Made by a program: the position numbers and the translations under genes. The notes beneath the pieces were generated by a model. The model was not told the origin of the DNA and made no database searches. It worked only from the letters and a program-made list of their open reading frames with translations. Of a stretch of DNA of 43,062 nt, positions 223-43,062 are shown piece by piece. Position 1 is the stretch's first letter. The number at the start of each line of letters is the position of its first letter. The stretch comes from an uncultured Candidatus Peregrinibacteria bacterium (GTDB lineage: Bacteria; Patescibacteriota; Gracilibacteria; Peribacterales; Peribacteraceae): NCBI GenBank assembly GCA_937863435.1, contig CALMES010000119.1:1-43062 (forward strand). The letters run 5' to 3'.

Positions 223-627
223 AAAACAGGACAGGCTACGCCTGACGGTGAGGGTAAACCAGTGGAGGGAATTTTCTCAGAGAAAACTATCCCAGTTATT
301 CCAAACATCCACCAGAAAGTTTATGAAGCGGCCAGCGTAGAGAACGCGCTCGATATGGGTAACTGGCACACCAATGAGAAGGTGGACGAAGCAACCGGCG
401 CGCACTGTGGTACAACTCACTGCCGTGCCGGATGGGTGGTTATGCTGGCCGGAGCCGAAGGTCGCAAACTGGAGCTGCTGACCTCAACCGCGTTCGCTGC
501 TCAAATGATCTACAAACATTCGTCACCGATCCACGTAGCACCTACCAAATTCTACGTGAATAACGAGGCGGCTATGGCCGATATGAAAGACTGTGCCGAG
601 CGTGAGGCTGGTATGGTAAAAGGATAA
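1..627 (+). CDS. Cysteine tripeptide-repeat protein, 3' part (continues from 42628)
   Basis: Read in frame 1 from the first base, this holds 25 more Cys-x-x units up to base 222 (counting the TGC supplied by the junction), one of them a variant Cys-Ile-Asp at 61-69. A unique C-terminal domain of 134 residues follows, with the stop at 625-627. The domain contains IPVIPNIHQKVYEAAS, a GNWH element, CGTTHCRAGWVVMLAG and a late AMADMKDCAERE helix; the CGTTHCRAGW block looks like the conserved signature of the family. An independent start at 262 (GTG) would leave out the repeats, but the frame is continuous with the array, so I treat that as an artefact of splitting the gene. A hairpin terminator follows at 655. 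The next gene, portal, faces the other way. Confidence 0.75.
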   Translation, partial: SSCSSCSSCSSCSSCSSCSSCIDCRYCSDCSDCRYCSDCRYCSDCSDCSDCRYCSSCSDCRYCRYCSDCSDCSDKTGQATPDGEGKPVEGIFSEKTIPVIPNIHQKVYEAASVENALDMGNWHTNEKVDEATGAHCGTTHCRAGWVVMLAGAEGRKLELLTSTAFAAQMIYKHSSPIHVAPTKFYVNNEAAMADMKDCAEREAGMVKG

Positions 628-654
628 TCTCTGTTTTCTCACGATGGAAAACCG

Positions 655-685
655 CCCGGATGCAGAAATGTGTCCGGGTTTTTTT
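655..685 (+). terminator. Rho-independent terminator of the repeat gene
   Basis: Stem CCCGGA (655-660) with TCCGGG (673-678), a 12-base loop, then seven T. It lies 28 bases after the repeat gene stop, and its T-run overlaps the stop codon of the oppositely oriented portal gene. Confidence 0.75.
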
Positions 686-1985
686 ATTGCTGACCAGGTG
701 TAGTAGTGACCGGTTTAGGGGTCGTGGCCTTATAGCCCTCAGCGTCGAGTCCGATAATCTCCATAGCGTCGTCGGTTTGGTAACCATTACGCACGAGGAT
801 GTCAACCGCCTGCGTTTTTTTATAGCTCACCTCAGCCTCTTTGGTGCGGTCAAACTGCATGATTGGTAGGTGATCGTACTCCAGGCATACATACTGACGT
901 TTATCTGGCAGACCCAGTGACTTACTGATCGAGTATGAGTAGTCCTCAGCAATAGGTACAATCGTGTCCTGGTAGCAGAGCTTCTCGCCCATCTCAACGT
1001 TGGTGAACGTGGACCCTTTGGCGTTTACGCCGGAGCAGAACATGAACTCATTACCGCCCATAATGTCGATGATCGCCTTACGGTTCGAGTCAACCTCCTC
1101 AAATAACATGAGCTCTTTCGTCGGGTATGTGGCCGGGTTCCACTTCAATGCTTTGGGCGAGATAGCAACCTTATGTTGGTCGTCAAAAATTCCGTATGTA
1201 TCCAGGAGCTGCGCGGTAACATCGTCTACCTCATCCGGTGTGAGCTGAATTGATCCCATGCTATCCTTAGCATCCGAGCTCCATACACCGATAGCACCCT
1301 TTTTAGTCAGGATTGCGTTACGGTAACCGTATGCTGCGCGTATGTTTGAGATCGGCATTTTTAGTGCCATGAGCGGAGACACGCCCATGATCGGGTCGTC
1401 ACAGTCAGGCCGTGCCATCTGAATGATCTCGTAAGGGTAGAAAAACTCGTCGGCGTTTTCATTTTTCAACCGGTACCTGTTTATAATTTCTTCCGGCGTG
1501 GTAGCAGTCCAGATTTTGCCGGTACGCTCCACGACCATGCGCTGAGGTGGTAGATTCCAGAGCGCGGTCGGCACATCTGCGAGTCTTGACCCGATGAGCT
1601 TATAGGTATAGGTAGCGGGGTATAAGCAGCGCTGCACAAACCACTGAAACAGAAACTGGTTACGGGATTGGTGGATGTTAGGATTTTCCAGAAAGCGGAC
1701 GATCTCAGAGTTTTCTACCTCTGTCCCGTCCTCGTTGTAATGCTTCCACATACCGTTTGCAAACATGAGCGCCAGGCGATCCACAACCATGCGGAGCTCC
1801 GGGGTGGTGAGGTAAATTTCGCGCTCTTTACCGTTGATGCTGGTCCACTCCTCCGACTTGTCCAGGCGCATGACCTTCATTTTGAAGTCTGCCGGGGAAA
1901 TAAACCGGTTGCTGTTTTTACCTCCCATTCCAACGAGTCCACCTACGTAGGTGTTACCGAACCAATCCAACATACTAAACGCCAT
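684..1985 (-). CDS. Portal protein, HK97-like
   Basis: 433 residues, the usual size of an HK97-type portal. Portal-like features are an N-terminal region with LYLTTPELRMVVDRLALMFA-type clamp sequence, RPDCDDPIMGVSPLMALKMP (the GxSPL element typical of portals) near the middle, and a long helix ending EVSYKKTQAVDILVRNGYQT. The portal forms the dodecameric ring through which terminase packages DNA and to which the neck attaches. The odd point is orientation: it is on minus, while terminase (40559-41740) and protease/capsid (2520-4809) on either side in the circle are on plus. It has its own promoter at 2008-2040, so it is a separate transcription unit. The 3' end is Pro/Thr-rich. Confidence 0.88.
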   Translation of the reverse strand: MAFSMLDWFGNTYVGGLVGMGGKNSNRFISPADFKMKVMRLDKSEEWTSINGKEREIYLTTPELRMVVDRLALMFANGMWKHYNEDGTEVENSEIVRFLENPNIHQSRNQFLFQWFVQRCLYPATYTYKLIGSRLADVPTALWNLPPQRMVVERTGKIWTATTPEEIINRYRLKNENADEFFYPYEIIQMARPDCDDPIMGVSPLMALKMPISNIRAAYGYRNAILTKKGAIGVWSSDAKDSMGSIQLTPDEVDDVTAQLLDTYGIFDDQHKVAISPKALKWNPATYPTKELMLFEEVDSNRKAIIDIMGGNEFMFCSGVNAKGSTFTNVEMGEKLCYQDTIVPIAEDYSYSISKSLGLPDKRQYVCLEYDHLPIMQFDRTKEAEVSYKKTQAVDILVRNGYQTDDAMEIIGLDAEGYKATTPKPVTTTPGQQ

Positions 1986-27629: not shown

Positions 27630-28053
27630 AATCTGCTGAAATTTCTCCCCATTCTGCCGTATGCCATTTTGATACAGCGATGGAGTCGTTAATAACTAAA
27701 TCTATGCCGTCGTGCTCTACCTCAACTGTTTTGAGAAATTCGAGTGATCGACGTACAAGCTCGTGGGCTTTTTTGGTTTTTTCATGCACCACGAGTTTTG
27801 AATTTACTTTTTTGTCCTTTAACCAGGCCATTGCCGTTACTGAGTCGCAATAAATCTGAGTGTGCCCGTTCTGCATGGCGTACCCGATAGCGTGGCACAG
27901 CGCCACAAATTCGCAAATATTGTTTGTGGCGTAGCCGATTTGCGAGCTAAACACAATGTCTCCGGTGTAAATGTCAACGCCGCGATATTTTGACGGCCCG
28001 GGATTACCGCTGCACGCTCCATCTACGGCGAGTCCGCTATTAGGCATTTGCAT
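27613..28053 (-). CDS. rnhA: Ribonuclease HI
   Basis: 146 residues if the start is ATG 28053; an in-frame ATG at 28077 would add eight. DGACSGNPG carries the first catalytic Asp, NNICEF the Glu, YCDS the second Asp, and the end GEISADYG the last Asp, so the active site is complete. It removes RNA from RNA-DNA hybrids, such as primers or R-loops. The start overlaps the annealing protein stop, indicating coupling. Confidence 0.85.
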   Translation of the reverse strand: MQMPNSGLAVDGACSGNPGPSKYRGVDIYTGDIVFSSQIGYATNNICEFVALCHAIGYAMQNGHTQIYCDSVTAMAWLKDKKVNSKLVVHEKTKKAHELVRRSLEFLKTVEVEHDGIDLVINDSIAVSKWHTAEWGEISADYGNKK

Positions 28054-28768
28054 TGGTGACAGGTTTTGATTGTTCAATCAACATTTTTTCGTGCTCCTCG
28101 GATAGCTCGTAATGTTTTTTGATTGCTTTCAGTTTCGCAGGGCTCGCAGTCATTGTTTTCACTGCCTCTGACCATTGAGGAGATTCCGGTGTGAGCGGTT
28201 GTTTACCCTTCGTCGGTTGTGCTGCTGGCTGATCGCTTTTAGGCTCTCCAGTCGCTTTACCGTCGTCGTCCTTGTCAGACGAAAGGCCGAGAGCGCCTTC
28301 AAGTGTGTAGCGTTTCAGGTAGCTGATCGAGGACCCGATACTCTGGATTGCATTTTTTTTGCCGCTCACGTCTGCAGGTGCTACGATAAACGTCTGCTCC
28401 TCGTGGCCTCCAACGTGAGAAACGATACAGGTAACCTTGAATTTATCCCCCTCTGGTTGCTGTTCCCAGCGGTAAGACAACCCTACCTCGCTGAGGATTG
28501 GGTCTACCTGCGCCTGAATGTTCGGCAAAGAGTTGTAAACGTAGTTAACCCGTCCTCCTCCCTGGAGCGCATAGTCCACCTTACTTTCTTTTACGAGCTT
28601 AGGTTTTTTTGCCTGAAAATCTACCATTGCCTGTTTGAACGCTTTAGCTGCTTCTTTTTTCTCCCAGCGTTCGTTGAGGTCGAAAAGTTTTTCCATCGTT
28701 TCGATGGTTGTCCCCTTTTCAATAGCCTGAGAGATCAGATTATAAGGGGTCATTAATTCATTACTCAT
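28040..28768 (-). CDS. ERF-type single-strand annealing protein
   Basis: 242 residues from ATG 28768, first gene of the minus operon. The N-terminal 170 residues carry the ERF pattern (FKQAMVDFQAKKPKLVKES, RVNYVYNSLPNIQAQVDPIL, then IGSSISYLKRYTLEGALGL). The C-terminal part is a flexible linker (GEPKSDQPAAQPTKGKQPLT) and a small helical end. It anneals complementary single strands in recombination-dependent replication or repair, partnered by the nuclease two genes downstream. Confidence 0.85.
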   Translation of the reverse strand: MSNELMTPYNLISQAIEKGTTIETMEKLFDLNERWEKKEAAKAFKQAMVDFQAKKPKLVKESKVDYALQGGGRVNYVYNSLPNIQAQVDPILSEVGLSYRWEQQPEGDKFKVTCIVSHVGGHEEQTFIVAPADVSGKKNAIQSIGSSISYLKRYTLEGALGLSSDKDDDGKATGEPKSDQPAAQPTKGKQPLTPESPQWSEAVKTMTASPAKLKAIKKHYELSEEHEKMLIEQSKPVTNANA

Positions 28769-28791: not shown

Positions 28792-28799
28792 CAAATATA
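28792..28799 (-). promoter_or_regulatory. Promoter element of minus operon
   Basis: TATATTTG on minus, a full TAnnTTTG match, 23 bases before the ERF start. It shares the AT-rich block 28797-28845 with the divergent rightward promoter, so the two early operons are controlled from one site. Confidence 0.5.
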
Positions 28800-28845
28800 A
28801 ATAATTTATTTATAATAAATAATTTTTTTATAAATATTTTATTCT

Positions 28846-28911: not shown

Positions 28912-28942
28912 GCTCCATAGTATTAATCATTTAATCAAAATT

Positions 28943-34412: not shown

Positions 34413-34468
34413 ATGCTGGATTTTTAAAAATATTTCAGAATTTATGTATAAATTATAAATAAACTATT

Positions 34469-34476
34469 TATATTTG
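34469..34476 (+). promoter_or_regulatory. AT-rich promoter element
   Basis: TATATTTG after a run of AT (34441-34468) that matches the blocks at 38271 and 42573. It leaves about 25 bases before the next ATG. Confidence 0.5.
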
Positions 34477-34503: not shown

Positions 34504-34806
34504 ATGAGCACACCAAGAGCAAACAAGGCATTTGATTTTCTGGCGACCAGAAACGTGTTTTCTGACAACTTGGAGCAATCCGATTGGGTATTTAACCTTA
34601 TGAATTTTCAGGACCATAAAGGCGATGAGGCGCTTTGCGCGTTGGCTGGGTTCTACCTTTATGTTGTAAAAAATGTAGATGGAGAGGAGAAACAAACGCG
34701 GGCTTTAAAATCCACATTCGCCCATGATCTTAACGGGGCTGCTGACGAGATGCTGTTACCTCGATCTTCCAGTTATGTTGAATATTTCGACCAAGAGTTT
34801 AACTAA
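34504..34806 (+). CDS. Hypothetical protein
   Basis: 100 residues from ATG 34504 (MSTPRANKAFDFLATRNVFS), preferred to a TTG 30 bases upstream that lies at the promoter itself. Mixed helices with LAGFYLYVVKNVDGEE in the middle. First gene of the accessory block. Not recognised. Confidence 0.55.
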   Translation: MSTPRANKAFDFLATRNVFSDNLEQSDWVFNLMNFQDHKGDEALCALAGFYLYVVKNVDGEEKQTRALKSTFAHDLNGAADEMLLPRSSSYVEYFDQEFN

Positions 34807-38266: not shown

Positions 38267-38280
38267 TTAAATAATTTATT

Positions 38281-38288
38281 TATATTTG
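38281..38288 (+). promoter_or_regulatory. AT-rich promoter abutting a start codon
   Basis: TATATTTG, four bases, then ATG at 38293. RNA synthesis from such an element begins a few bases downstream, so the transcript would be nearly or fully leaderless. The upstream AT block repeats that before 42594. Confidence 0.5.
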
Positions 38289-38292
38289 CCTT

Positions 38293-38565
38293 ATGAAAAA
38301 AGTAAAAATCAAAAAAGCAACGATGTGGAACCAGGAGGTAACAGCACCTAAACCAGAGGTTCGCGCGACGTTCTATAACGTCGGCTGGCTTGTGCTTATG
38401 CTTTATCTCGCGCTGGAGCACCACTGGATCACATTCTGGTTATTCATGCTCGCATGCCCTGCATTTGTTCATTTCTGGCGCTGGCGCAACGATAAAAAAG
38501 AACTCGTAGCCCGTCACAATGCTAACCTGGTAAAACACGGATTACTCCATGAGTCAGATCAATAA
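38293..38565 (+). CDS. Membrane protein
   Basis: 90 residues with a basic start (MKKVKIKKATMW), two close hydrophobic segments (GWLVLMLYLAL and WITFWLFMLACPAFVHFW), and a charged end. It could act at the inner membrane, for example in exclusion of other phages; no motif supports a precise role. Overlaps the next gene by 17 bases. Confidence 0.6.
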   Translation: MKKVKIKKATMWNQEVTAPKPEVRATFYNVGWLVLMLYLALEHHWITFWLFMLACPAFVHFWRWRNDKKELVARHNANLVKHGLLHESDQ

Positions 38566-42015: not shown

Positions 42016-42291
42016 ATGAACAAAAACGGCTTTATCTGGGCACTCCTGCTCATCAATTCAGTGTCAATCTGCCTGCTCAATTTTAAGGCGTGCAAAAATG
42101 AAACAGCACCAGATACACCTATCAACTACGAGCTATACAAGCACCGCTTCAATGAGCTGGAGGACCGGTTCGATACCCTGCAAAATCACTATAAATCTAT
42201 ATCCCATGAAATTACTAAAGACAGTATCGTTATTGTTAATGCTCCACGCAGCAAGCGTGACAGTATCCGCGCAGTCGTCAATCCCAGATAG
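42016..42291 (+). CDS. Inner-membrane spanin-like protein
   Basis: 91 residues. One N-terminal membrane segment (FIWALLLINSVSICLLNF) followed by a coiled coil (about 40-75), the form of an Rz-type i-spanin. A second envelope gene overlaps its end in another frame, as in Rz/Rz1 pairs. The assignment is by topology only. Confidence 0.55.
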   Translation: MNKNGFIWALLLINSVSICLLNFKACKNETAPDTPINYELYKHRFNELEDRFDTLQNHYKSISHEITKDSIVIVNAPRSKRDSIRAVVNPR

Positions 42292-42568
42292 CTGCATCTG
42301 CTACACCGACGCTCAGGACATCCGATGTTTGGAGTGTCTGGTGAATGCGCCTAAGCGTGCGGCGCAGCTCGAAAACGTACAGGATCAGCTATCACTCAGG
42401 TTGGCCGAGCTGGAGCTGGCCGGTGAATTGGTGACCGAACAGGCCGAGGTTATCACGGAACAGCAGGCGAAAATCGCCGAGCTGGACCGTAAAACCCAGA
42501 ACCGTACCCGGATTATTTTCGGGCTGCTGGCCGCGTTGGGTATAGAAACCATTATTTTGTTGAAATAA
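42206..42568 (+). CDS. Signal peptide, coiled coil and C-terminal membrane segment (spanin partner)
   Basis: 120 residues from ATG 42206, which overlaps the previous gene by 86 bases in another frame. A signal peptide ends about VSAQS; then CICYTDAQDIRCLECL, a coiled coil (about 45-90), and a C-terminal membrane segment (FGLLAALGIETIILL). The longer frame from 42098 would bury the signal peptide and is rejected. The overlap and topology suggest an envelope-spanning lysis protein, although there is no lipobox. Confidence 0.55.
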   Translation: MKLLKTVSLLLMLHAASVTVSAQSSIPDSCICYTDAQDIRCLECLVNAPKRAAQLENVQDQLSLRLAELELAGELVTEQAEVITEQQAKIAELDRKTQNRTRIIFGLLAALGIETIILLK

Positions 42569-42593
42569 TTTTATAGATTATAAATAATTTATT

Positions 42594-42601
42594 TATATTT
42601 G
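42594..42601 (+). promoter_or_regulatory. AT-rich promoter of repeat gene
   Basis: TATATTTG after TAAATAATTTATT, the same block as at 38271 and 28797. It leaves a leader of about 25 bases before the tripeptide-repeat gene. Confidence 0.5.
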
Positions 42602-42627: not shown

Positions 42628-43062
42628 ATGAAAACAGAGATTTTTAAGGATTTTCGCGCGTTTCTGAACCGTGAGGATAAAACGGTGAACGGTGTTAGCG
42701 CATCATTTGCCGAGAAGCACCCAAATTTTGCGGAGCAAAATAGCACAAACGAAGGTTGTTGGAATTGCAGCTCTTGCAGCGATTGCAGCGATTGCAGCGA
42801 TTGCAGCGATTGCAGCTCTTGCAGCGATTGCAGATATTGCAGATATTGCAGCGATTGCAGATATTGCAGCTCTTGCAGCGATTGCAGATATTGCAGATAT
42901 TGCAGCGATTGCAGCGATTGCAGCGATTGCAGCTCTTGCAGCGATTGCAGCGATTGCAGCGATTGCAGCTCTTGCAGCGATTGCAGATATTGCAGATATT
43001 GCAGCTCTTGCAGCTCTTGCAGCTCTTGCAGCTCTTGCAGCTCTTGCAGCTCTTGCAGCTCT
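42628..43062 (+). CDS. Cysteine tripeptide-repeat protein, 5' part (continues at base 1)
   Basis: Start ATG at 42628, 27 bases after a TATATTTG promoter element. A 46-residue N-terminal segment (MKTEIFKDFRAF..., ending GCWN) leads into tandem 9-base units encoding Cys-Ser-Ser, Cys-Ser-Asp or Cys-Arg-Tyr, and the frame is open to the last base of the window. The last 60 bases equal the first 60; merging them continues the frame into the segment ending at 627, giving 333 residues (46 N-terminal, about 153 of repeat, 134 C-terminal). The order of the three unit types is irregular. I recognise similar Cys-x-x repeat proteins with the same C-terminal domain from environmental and phage sequences, but know no function. 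A cysteine every third residue could line up on one face of an extended helix and bind metal or cross-link; that is inference. The true repeat number is uncertain. Confidence 0.8.
   Translation, partial: MKTEIFKDFRAFLNREDKTVNGVSASFAEKHPNFAEQNSTNEGCWNCSSCSDCSDCSDCSDCSSCSDCRYCRYCSDCRYCSSCSDCRYCRYCSDCSDCSDCSSCSDCSDCSDCSSCSDCRYCRYCSSCSSCSSCSSCSSCSSCSS
42757..43062 (+). repeat. 9-bp tandem array, right-hand part
   Basis: Tandem 9-base units with a constant TTGCAG and a variable triplet that is CTC, CGA or ATA. After a divergent first unit (TGTTGGAAT) there are 26 mixed units to 42999, then a pure run of the CTC type to the window end. No base drifts inside the units, so either the array is young and kept uniform by slippage or recombination, or selection holds both the DNA and the peptide. 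All six reading frames stay open through the array. Confidence 0.95.
43003..43062 (+). repeat. 60-base right end identical to bases 1-60
   Basis: Six full 9-base units plus six bases, equal to bases 1-60 in order and phase. Merging the copies keeps the open frame and the repeat phase, whereas simple end-to-end joining would lose three bases of phase. This supports a circular or circularly permuted molecule of about 43,002 bases, or that plus a multiple of nine. Confidence 0.7.

What the first reader, a model, noticed from the sequence alone, without database searches (positions are those of the whole stretch)
42628..43062. Gene with about 51 cysteine tripeptides in a three-letter code, spanning the genome junction
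The joined gene (42628-43062 plus 1-627) encodes a short N-terminus, about 51 units of CSS, CSD or CRY in irregular order, and a conserved C-terminal domain (CGTTHCRAGW). A strict Cys-x-x period over some 150 residues is very unusual for a phage cytoplasmic protein. It could be a metal-binding or cross-linking rod, and the three side-chain types (neutral, acidic, basic-aromatic) look like a surface code. The C-terminal domain with Cys and His may be the functional head. I know related proteins exist but no function; this is the best candidate for an undescribed system.
Basis: partly seen in the sequence, partly recalled or inferred. Interest (0 to 1): 0.85.

Follow-up and report, generated by a model that had tools for sequence, protein, structure and literature searches.

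The report
Phage cysteine-repeat rod with conserved head
Many bacterial viruses carry a protein made of a rod of up to about 60 three-residue cysteine units joined to a small conserved head; here it is real but cut in two by the assembly, its rod most resembles a beetle antifreeze protein coil, and what it does in the infected cell is still unknown.

Summary
The gene is real and in frame, but the window's ends fall inside the array: both ends are pure TGCAGCTCT, overlap by up to 60 nt, and abut with one TGC missing. The unit number is therefore unknown (51 if the ends overlap, about 57 if they abut, possibly more). Six other phage contigs are cut at the same place. The protein has an N-cap, a Cys-x-x array and a ~100-residue helical head (AlphaFold pLDDT 90-98). 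The head is widespread (398 IMG/VR stretches, 36 GTDB loci), has no Pfam or NCBIfam model, and is remotely related to stand-alone actinophage proteins (PHROG_889). Most relatives fuse it to Cys arrays, others to pentapeptide repeats. Cys period 3 is kept at protein level: codons and outer residues differ between phages, and Cys is replaced by Ser, Ile, Leu or Ala, not His, Asp or Glu. The arrays' only good match among solved structures is the Tenebrio antifreeze beta-helix (1EZG), in register; shuffled arrays match nothing. The gene has its own phage-specific promoter element, shared with the Erf recombinase gene, and a terminator. Best reading: an early phage accessory protein, a solenoid rod presenting a head. 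Target unknown; AlphaFold did not fold the array.

The parts
42580..42601 (+). Phage-specific promoter-like element ATAAATAATTTATTTATATTTG (contains TATATTTG, fitting the Bacteroidota -7 box TAnnTTTG); ATG follows after 26 nt
   Evidence: Six matches with up to 3 mismatches in the window, expected 0.00 in shuffles; with up to 2 mismatches four copies, all on this contig, none elsewhere in the 2.14 Mb assembly; gene distances
42628..42756 (+). N-terminal cap, 43 residues (MKTEIFKDFRAFLNREDKTVNGVS...NEG), conserved in NGVS-type relatives
   Evidence: Alignment A4; model of relative L106 gives strand-helix-strand-helix at moderate confidence
42757..43062 (+). First part of the Cys-x-x array: CWN and 33 nine-base units, ending in 7 identical CSS units at the contig end
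1..222 (+). Second part of the array: partial unit AGCTCT, then 24 units starting with 6 identical CSS units; the first 60 nt are identical to the last 60 nt of the window
223..285 (+). Polar linker between array and head
   Evidence: Low conservation; low pLDDT before about residue 90
286..624 (+). Conserved helical head domain (NIHQKVYEA...CGTTHCRAGW...LAG...MADMK)
   Evidence: PHROG_31265 E 6.5e-29; alignments A1 and A2; AlphaFold2 pLDDT 90-98 over most of it
654..679 (+). Intrinsic terminator after the gene (11-pair stem, T run)

Best explanation
This is a phage accessory protein built as cap, rod and head. Inferred: the Cys-x-x array folds as a thin right-handed beta-solenoid of the Tenebrio antifreeze kind. 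There, every third side chain points inward and four tripeptides (12 residues) make one coil, so 51 or more units would give about 13 or more coils, a rod of roughly 60 A. The interior here would be stacked Cys thiols, because the protein has no visible secretion signal and should stay in the reducing cytoplasm. Shown: the array is joined to a compact conserved head (helical in the model), and the gene stands alone between a phage-specific promoter-like element, shared with the Erf recombinase gene, and a terminator. Inferred from this: it acts early in infection, the head contacts a host or phage target, and the rod sets distance, multivalency or a binding surface, as pentapeptide rods would in the sister proteins. 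The nine-base units let the rod change length in frame by unit gain or loss. The target is unknown; a takeover or counter-defence role is the most likely class.
For: In-frame gene and homogeneous units. Head fused to Cys arrays (89 loci) or pentapeptide repeats (29 loci), with at least two changes between these types on a head tree. Stand-alone relatives of the head without an array in Gordonia and Synechococcus phages. Different phages encode CSx with different Ser codons, each array homogenised on its own, and other frames often contain stops, so the Cys-x-x frame is what is kept. Strongly diverged arrays keep little but Cys at period 3. Internal Cys replacements are Ser, Ile, Leu, Ala, Thr, Gly, Phe or Met once wrong-frame rows are set aside, much like the inward residues C, S, C, A of the beetle coil (PMC8038014). 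phmmer: 1EZG is the best solved-structure match of the window array (E 7e-4) and of diverged array L195 (E 5e-4), in register; residue-shuffled arrays match nothing. Promoter-like element and terminator. Unit indel in frame in an otherwise identical 15.3 kb.
Against: AlphaFold2 left the array at pLDDT about 40 or below, so the solenoid is not modelled. The 1EZG match is short and composition-biased (bias about 34 bits), and a profile of arrays matches it only at E 0.0013, with CXXC zinc fingers next. Beetle proteins are secreted and disulfide-bonded; this one is presumably not. No significant 4-unit period was found in outer residues. Exchange with pentapeptide repeats needs only a few events on the tree. 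The gene's neighbours in the window are late genes (terminase, portal). No evidence identifies a target.
Confidence: 0.5

Rival explanations
1. The array is a metal-binding polymer, a phage metallothionein-like sink or store, with the head as regulator or metal-using domain.
For: One residue in three is Cys and the array is presumably cytoplasmic; a profile of arrays weakly matches CXXC zinc fingers; the head has conserved Cys and His.
Against: Cys is not replaced by His, Asp or Glu in genuine arrays; heads with pentapeptide repeats do without the Cys array; the spacing is rigidly three, unlike the mixed C-C, C-x-C and C-x-x-C spacing of metallothioneins (general knowledge).
Confidence: 0.2
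2. The array is a fast-changing binding surface: phages gain and lose units to change specificity or length, like a contingency locus, and the unit order matters.
For: Between L052 and L056 the only differences in 15.3 kb are a three-unit indel and one base, both in the array; arrays of L080 and L111 differ throughout although the surrounding gene parts are about 89-90% identical.
Against: L067, L068 and L111 are 99.7-99.8% identical with the same array where compared; unit order is near random with only a weak lag 3-6 excess; plain slippage or recombination in nine-base repeats explains the variation without selection; L052 and L056 could be two assemblies of related samples.
Confidence: 0.15
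3. The array is an unfolded or polyproline-II-like flexible spacer, and only the head has a function.
For: AlphaFold gives the array very low confidence; array length varies from about 5 to over 60 units; stand-alone heads exist in actinophages.
Against: A spacer need not keep Cys at every third place while all other positions drift; well over ten N-cap array proteins of the second scan have an array and no head in frame, so the array is kept for itself.
Confidence: 0.12
4. The array is read in another frame, or is a DNA element, and the Cys frame is incidental.
For: In the window several other frames are open; in Flavobacterium phage FL-1 a different frame of the array was annotated as the gene.
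Against: Across 78 arrays other frames often contain stops, and codons differ while CSx is kept; N-cap and head are both in the Cys frame in all complete relatives.
Confidence: 0.02

Closest known systems
PHROG_15341 and PHROG_31265 (phage protein families of unknown function)
   Same: The window's array matches 15341 and its head matches 31265; 100 of 100 head-bearing relatives match 31265.
   Different: 31265 appears to be modelled on the pentapeptide-plus-head form: its positions 68-152 match a pentapeptide protein and 149-249 the head. Neither family has a stated function or architecture.
Tenebrio molitor antifreeze (thermal hysteresis) protein, 1EZG
   Same: Every third residue is inward (C, S, C, A), giving a Cys-rich right-handed beta-helix (PMC8038014); best solved-structure match, in register.
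   Different: All inward places are Cys here; there are no TCT ice-binding ranks, no visible secretion signal, and there are an N-cap and a head. Ice binding is not proposed.
Pentapeptide-repeat proteins (Pfam PF00805; MfpA/Qnr type)
   Same: Sister proteins with the same head have a pentapeptide array in the place of the Cys array; both are tandem arrays of short units with small inward residues (pentapeptide fold from general knowledge).
   Different: Unit of three residues instead of five, Cys at the inward place, unrelated N-caps. The charge is mildly negative, not clearly DNA-mimic-like.
PHROG_889 / PHROG_30739 stand-alone proteins (e.g. Gordonia phage Yvonnetastic gp90-92)
   Same: Shared core motif W...CGTxxCxAGWAxxLSG, hhalign probability 95.5%.
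   Different: No repeat array; the His of the HC motif is not kept and the alignment covers only 39 columns.

Membership tests
PHROG_31265 / head family | Head domain with C...TTHCRAGW | tested here: met
   E 6.5e-29; invariant C136, H140, C141, R142, A143, G144, W145 in 100 sequences
PHROG_15341 / phage Cys-tripeptide arrays | Cys at every third residue after a CWNC start | tested here: met
   E 8.4e-12 and 1.8e-09 for the two halves; N-cap alignment
Beetle antifreeze protein family | Cys-rich array with an inward-type residue at every third position | tested here: met
   1EZG match in register, shuffled controls empty
Beetle antifreeze protein family | 12-residue consensus TCTxSxNCxxAx with TCT ice-binding ranks | tested here: not met
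   Array is CSS/CSD/CRY; no Thr ranks
Beetle antifreeze protein family | Right-handed beta-helix structure | tested here: inconclusive
   Array not modelled by AlphaFold2, pLDDT about 40
Pentapeptide-repeat proteins (PF00805) | A(D/N)LXX repeats detected by Pfam | tested here: not met
   No Pfam match in the window protein
Metallothionein-like proteins | Binds metal through Cys clusters | not testable with these tools
   Needs purified protein; the sequence evidence speaks against it
Gyrase-binding DNA mimics (MfpA, Qnr) | Rod with strongly negative surface that inhibits or protects gyrase | tested here: inconclusive

The most novel reading that the evidence does not exclude
A new class of phage solenoid: a rod with an all-cysteine core stable in the reducing cytoplasm, whose length and surface change by in-frame unit gain and loss, serving as an exchangeable stalk for a widespread phage head domain that acts on a host target early in infection.
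Probability: 0.3. Interest if true: 0.8.

Novelty: new variant of a known kind. Interest (0 to 1): 0.55.

Why it matters
The head occurs in hundreds of phage contigs yet has no Pfam or NCBIfam model and no described function. The Cys-x-x array would be an unusual solenoid, with a core of free cysteines in the cytoplasm. The alternative pentapeptide form points to a common rod-and-head design that can be tested at once with one short member. The arrays also break assemblies, so circular phage genomes are cut there and genes are annotated as halves or in the wrong frame, which may be why the family has stayed unnoticed.

Tried and rejected
Pfam and NCBIfam for head, array and relatives: nothing above cut-off apart from pentapeptide repeats in a few relatives. 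PDB by sequence for the head: only insignificant matches. Fold searches of both models: no match in PDB; in BFVD only a 74-residue protein, A0A1P8VWG3, that is also sequence-related (55% identity). Coil period in unit order or outer residues: not found. Common ancestry of N-caps: not supported for the two comparisons made. Fixed genomic partner: none; neighbours are mixed phage genes (YqaJ-type exonuclease, methyltransferases, ASCH-like, terminase; names judged from sequence), each near only a minority of arrays. Copies in E. coli genomes by DNA: none. Literature on Cys tripeptide repeats in phages: none found. A tblastn with a partly made-up pentapeptide query gave nothing and is uninformative. 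The assembly was not available as a file.

Full report
What is there. The open frame from 42628 to the window end and that from 1 to 627 join in frame into one protein: a 43-residue cap, a Cys-x-x array, a linker and a conserved head. The array units are nine bases (TGCAGCTCT, TGCAGCGAT, TGCAGATAT, one TGCATCGAT), read CSS, CSD, CRY and CID. The joint itself is not clean: it reads CSS|SSC, one TGC short. Both ends of the window are 64 nt of pure TGCAGCTCT repeat and overlap by up to 60 nt. An assembler that meets a homogeneous repeat longer than its word size stops in this way. With the 60-nt overlap the array has 51 units plus CWN; with plain abutment about 57; the real CSS run may be longer.

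The junction is an assembly effect. In six other phage contigs (IMGVR_UViG_3300028841_000222, 3300027573_000048, 3300021088_000012, 3300003323_000950, 3300044693_000163, 3300035703_000016) an N-cap lies at one end and a head at the other, on one strand (loci), and 23 of 89 array loci begin inside an open frame at the contig start. The array is not an artefact in itself: 66 array loci are closed on the 5' side and hold array and head in one frame.

The family. A scan with the head alignment found 398 related stretches in IMG/VR and 36 loci in GTDB genomes, among them Dyadobacter, Spirosoma, Kaistia, Bosea and Xanthomonas. No Pfam or NCBIfam model covers it. PHROGs holds it as 31265 (head with pentapeptide repeats, judged from the matched positions) and 15341 (Cys array), both of unknown function. 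Three N-caps occur: NGVS type (including this window), GN type (many in Alphaproteobacteria), and the pentapeptide type; profile comparison of GN with pentapeptide caps and of NGVS with GN caps finds no relation outside the first Cys units. Array proteins without the head exist, for example Vibrio phage 1.238.A gp68, annotated as insect antifreeze protein (InterPro IPR016133).

The head. AlphaFold2 with 100 relatives gives a compact helical domain with pLDDT 90-98 over most of it, and no PDB match. Invariant residues cluster in C...HCRAGW. Stand-alone Gordonia phage proteins (three in a row in Yvonnetastic, gp90-92) and Synechococcus phage B23 gp222-223 share W/Y...CGTxxCxAGWA; hhalign gives 95.5% for the Gordonia set over 39 columns. 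In B23 the two head proteins stand next to a separate pentapeptide protein, gp224. In the Gordonia proteins the His is not kept, so a metal site of Cys and His is not general; the two Cys are kept.

The array is kept as protein. Each array uses mostly one or two Ser codons, but different phages use AGC, AGT, TCC, TCG, TCT or TCA; other frames have stops in many arrays. Diverged arrays keep Cys at every third place while other positions range over most residues. Where Cys is missing inside genuine arrays the residue is mostly Ser, else Ile, Leu, Ala, Thr, Gly, Phe or Met; the R, Q and H counts and part of the L counts come from wrong frames of L058 and L084. This fits a buried place better than a metal ligand.

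Fold. The only good sequence match among solved structures is the Tenebrio antifreeze protein 1EZG: E 7e-4 for the window array and 5e-4 for diverged array L195, aligned in the three-residue register; two residue-shuffled controls match nothing at E up to 5. In that beta-helix the pattern is out-in-out, with C2, S5, C8 and A11 inside a 12-residue coil (PMC8038014). The caveats are real: strong composition bias, AlphaFold gave no structure for the array, and no four-unit period shows in the outer residues. I therefore hold the solenoid as the best inference, not as shown.

Evolution. L052 and L056 are identical over 15.3 kb except for a three-unit indel and one base, both in the array; they could be assemblies of related samples. 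L067, L068 and L111, at 99.7-99.8%, share the same array. Unit order has a weak excess at lags 3-6 and none at lag 1, as block duplications would leave. On a tree of 112 heads the Cys and pentapeptide types need at least two changes (few columns, weak forks). So exchange looks rare but real.

Expression. An exact 22-nt element, ATAAATAATTTATTTATATTTG, ends 26 nt before the start codon. Three more copies with 1-2 mismatches stand before the Erf recombinase gene (start 28768, minus strand), an ORF at 34504 and one at 38293; shuffles give 0.00, and the rest of the 2.14 Mb assembly has none (Erf by PHROG_155). It contains TATATTTG, fitting the Bacteroides -7 consensus TAnnTTTG (from general knowledge; the term occurs in the papers listed, which were not read). 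A terminator follows at 654-679. The gene lies between the terminase genes and a portal gene on the other strand, so in a late neighbourhood, but has its own unit shared in control with a recombination gene. Early expression is an inference.

How it most likely works. Cap, rod, head; early; the head binds a target, the rod sets reach or multivalency. Takeover or counter-defence is the likeliest class because the gene is accessory, stand-alone and variable in position; nothing here identifies the target. Rivals and tests are listed in their sections.

Noticed in passing
window 28792-28813, 34455-34476, 38267-38288, 42580-42601: A phage-specific regulon element, near-palindromic AAATAAxTTATTT joined to TATATTTG, stands before four transcription units and nowhere else in the assembly.
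   Followed up: partly
window 28040-28768 (minus strand): The Erf-like annealing protein most likely starts at 28768, 23 nt after the element, not at 28930 as the longest ORF suggests.
   Followed up: partly
whole window (G000:C119): Relatives of the assembly have genomes of about 0.7-1.8 Mb, mostly about 1.2 Mb, without this family, while the phage looks Bacteroidota-like by promoter, terminase and array relatives: the contig may be mis-binned.
   Followed up: partly
L009 5564-6310 (Flavobacterium phage FL-1, KY421186.2): The Cys array is annotated in another frame and the head as a separate hypothetical protein; the head carries a one-base shift next to the TTHC motif (sequencing error or broken gene).
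   Followed up: partly
L148, L155, L157, L059 (IMGVR_UViG_3300035703_000016, 158 kb): One large phage contig carries three N-cap array genes, two of them without a head in frame.
   Followed up: no
L126 and L127 (Xanthomonas sp. NCPPB 1128, one contig): Two places about 37 kb apart share 15,093 identical bases including the pentapeptide-head gene: a duplicated prophage or an assembly effect.
   Followed up: no
L144 2306-3975 (Synechococcus phage B23 gp222-gp224): Two stand-alone head proteins directly precede a separate pentapeptide-repeat protein, a split form of the fused architecture.
   Followed up: partly
L110 5' end (uncultured Paracoccus MAG): The head is preceded by a leucine-rich-type repeat (LTVGGGLYLSGTPITALPE) instead of Cys or pentapeptide units; the contig starts within it.
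   Followed up: no
window 42016-42291 and 42098-42568: Overlapping ORFs in different frames after the terminase, the first starting with a hydrophobic segment that contains a Cys, look like a possible spanin pair; no PHROG match.
   Followed up: no
window 684-1985 (minus strand): The portal gene is on the opposite strand from the terminase and major head genes, an unusual order for a tailed phage.
   Followed up: no
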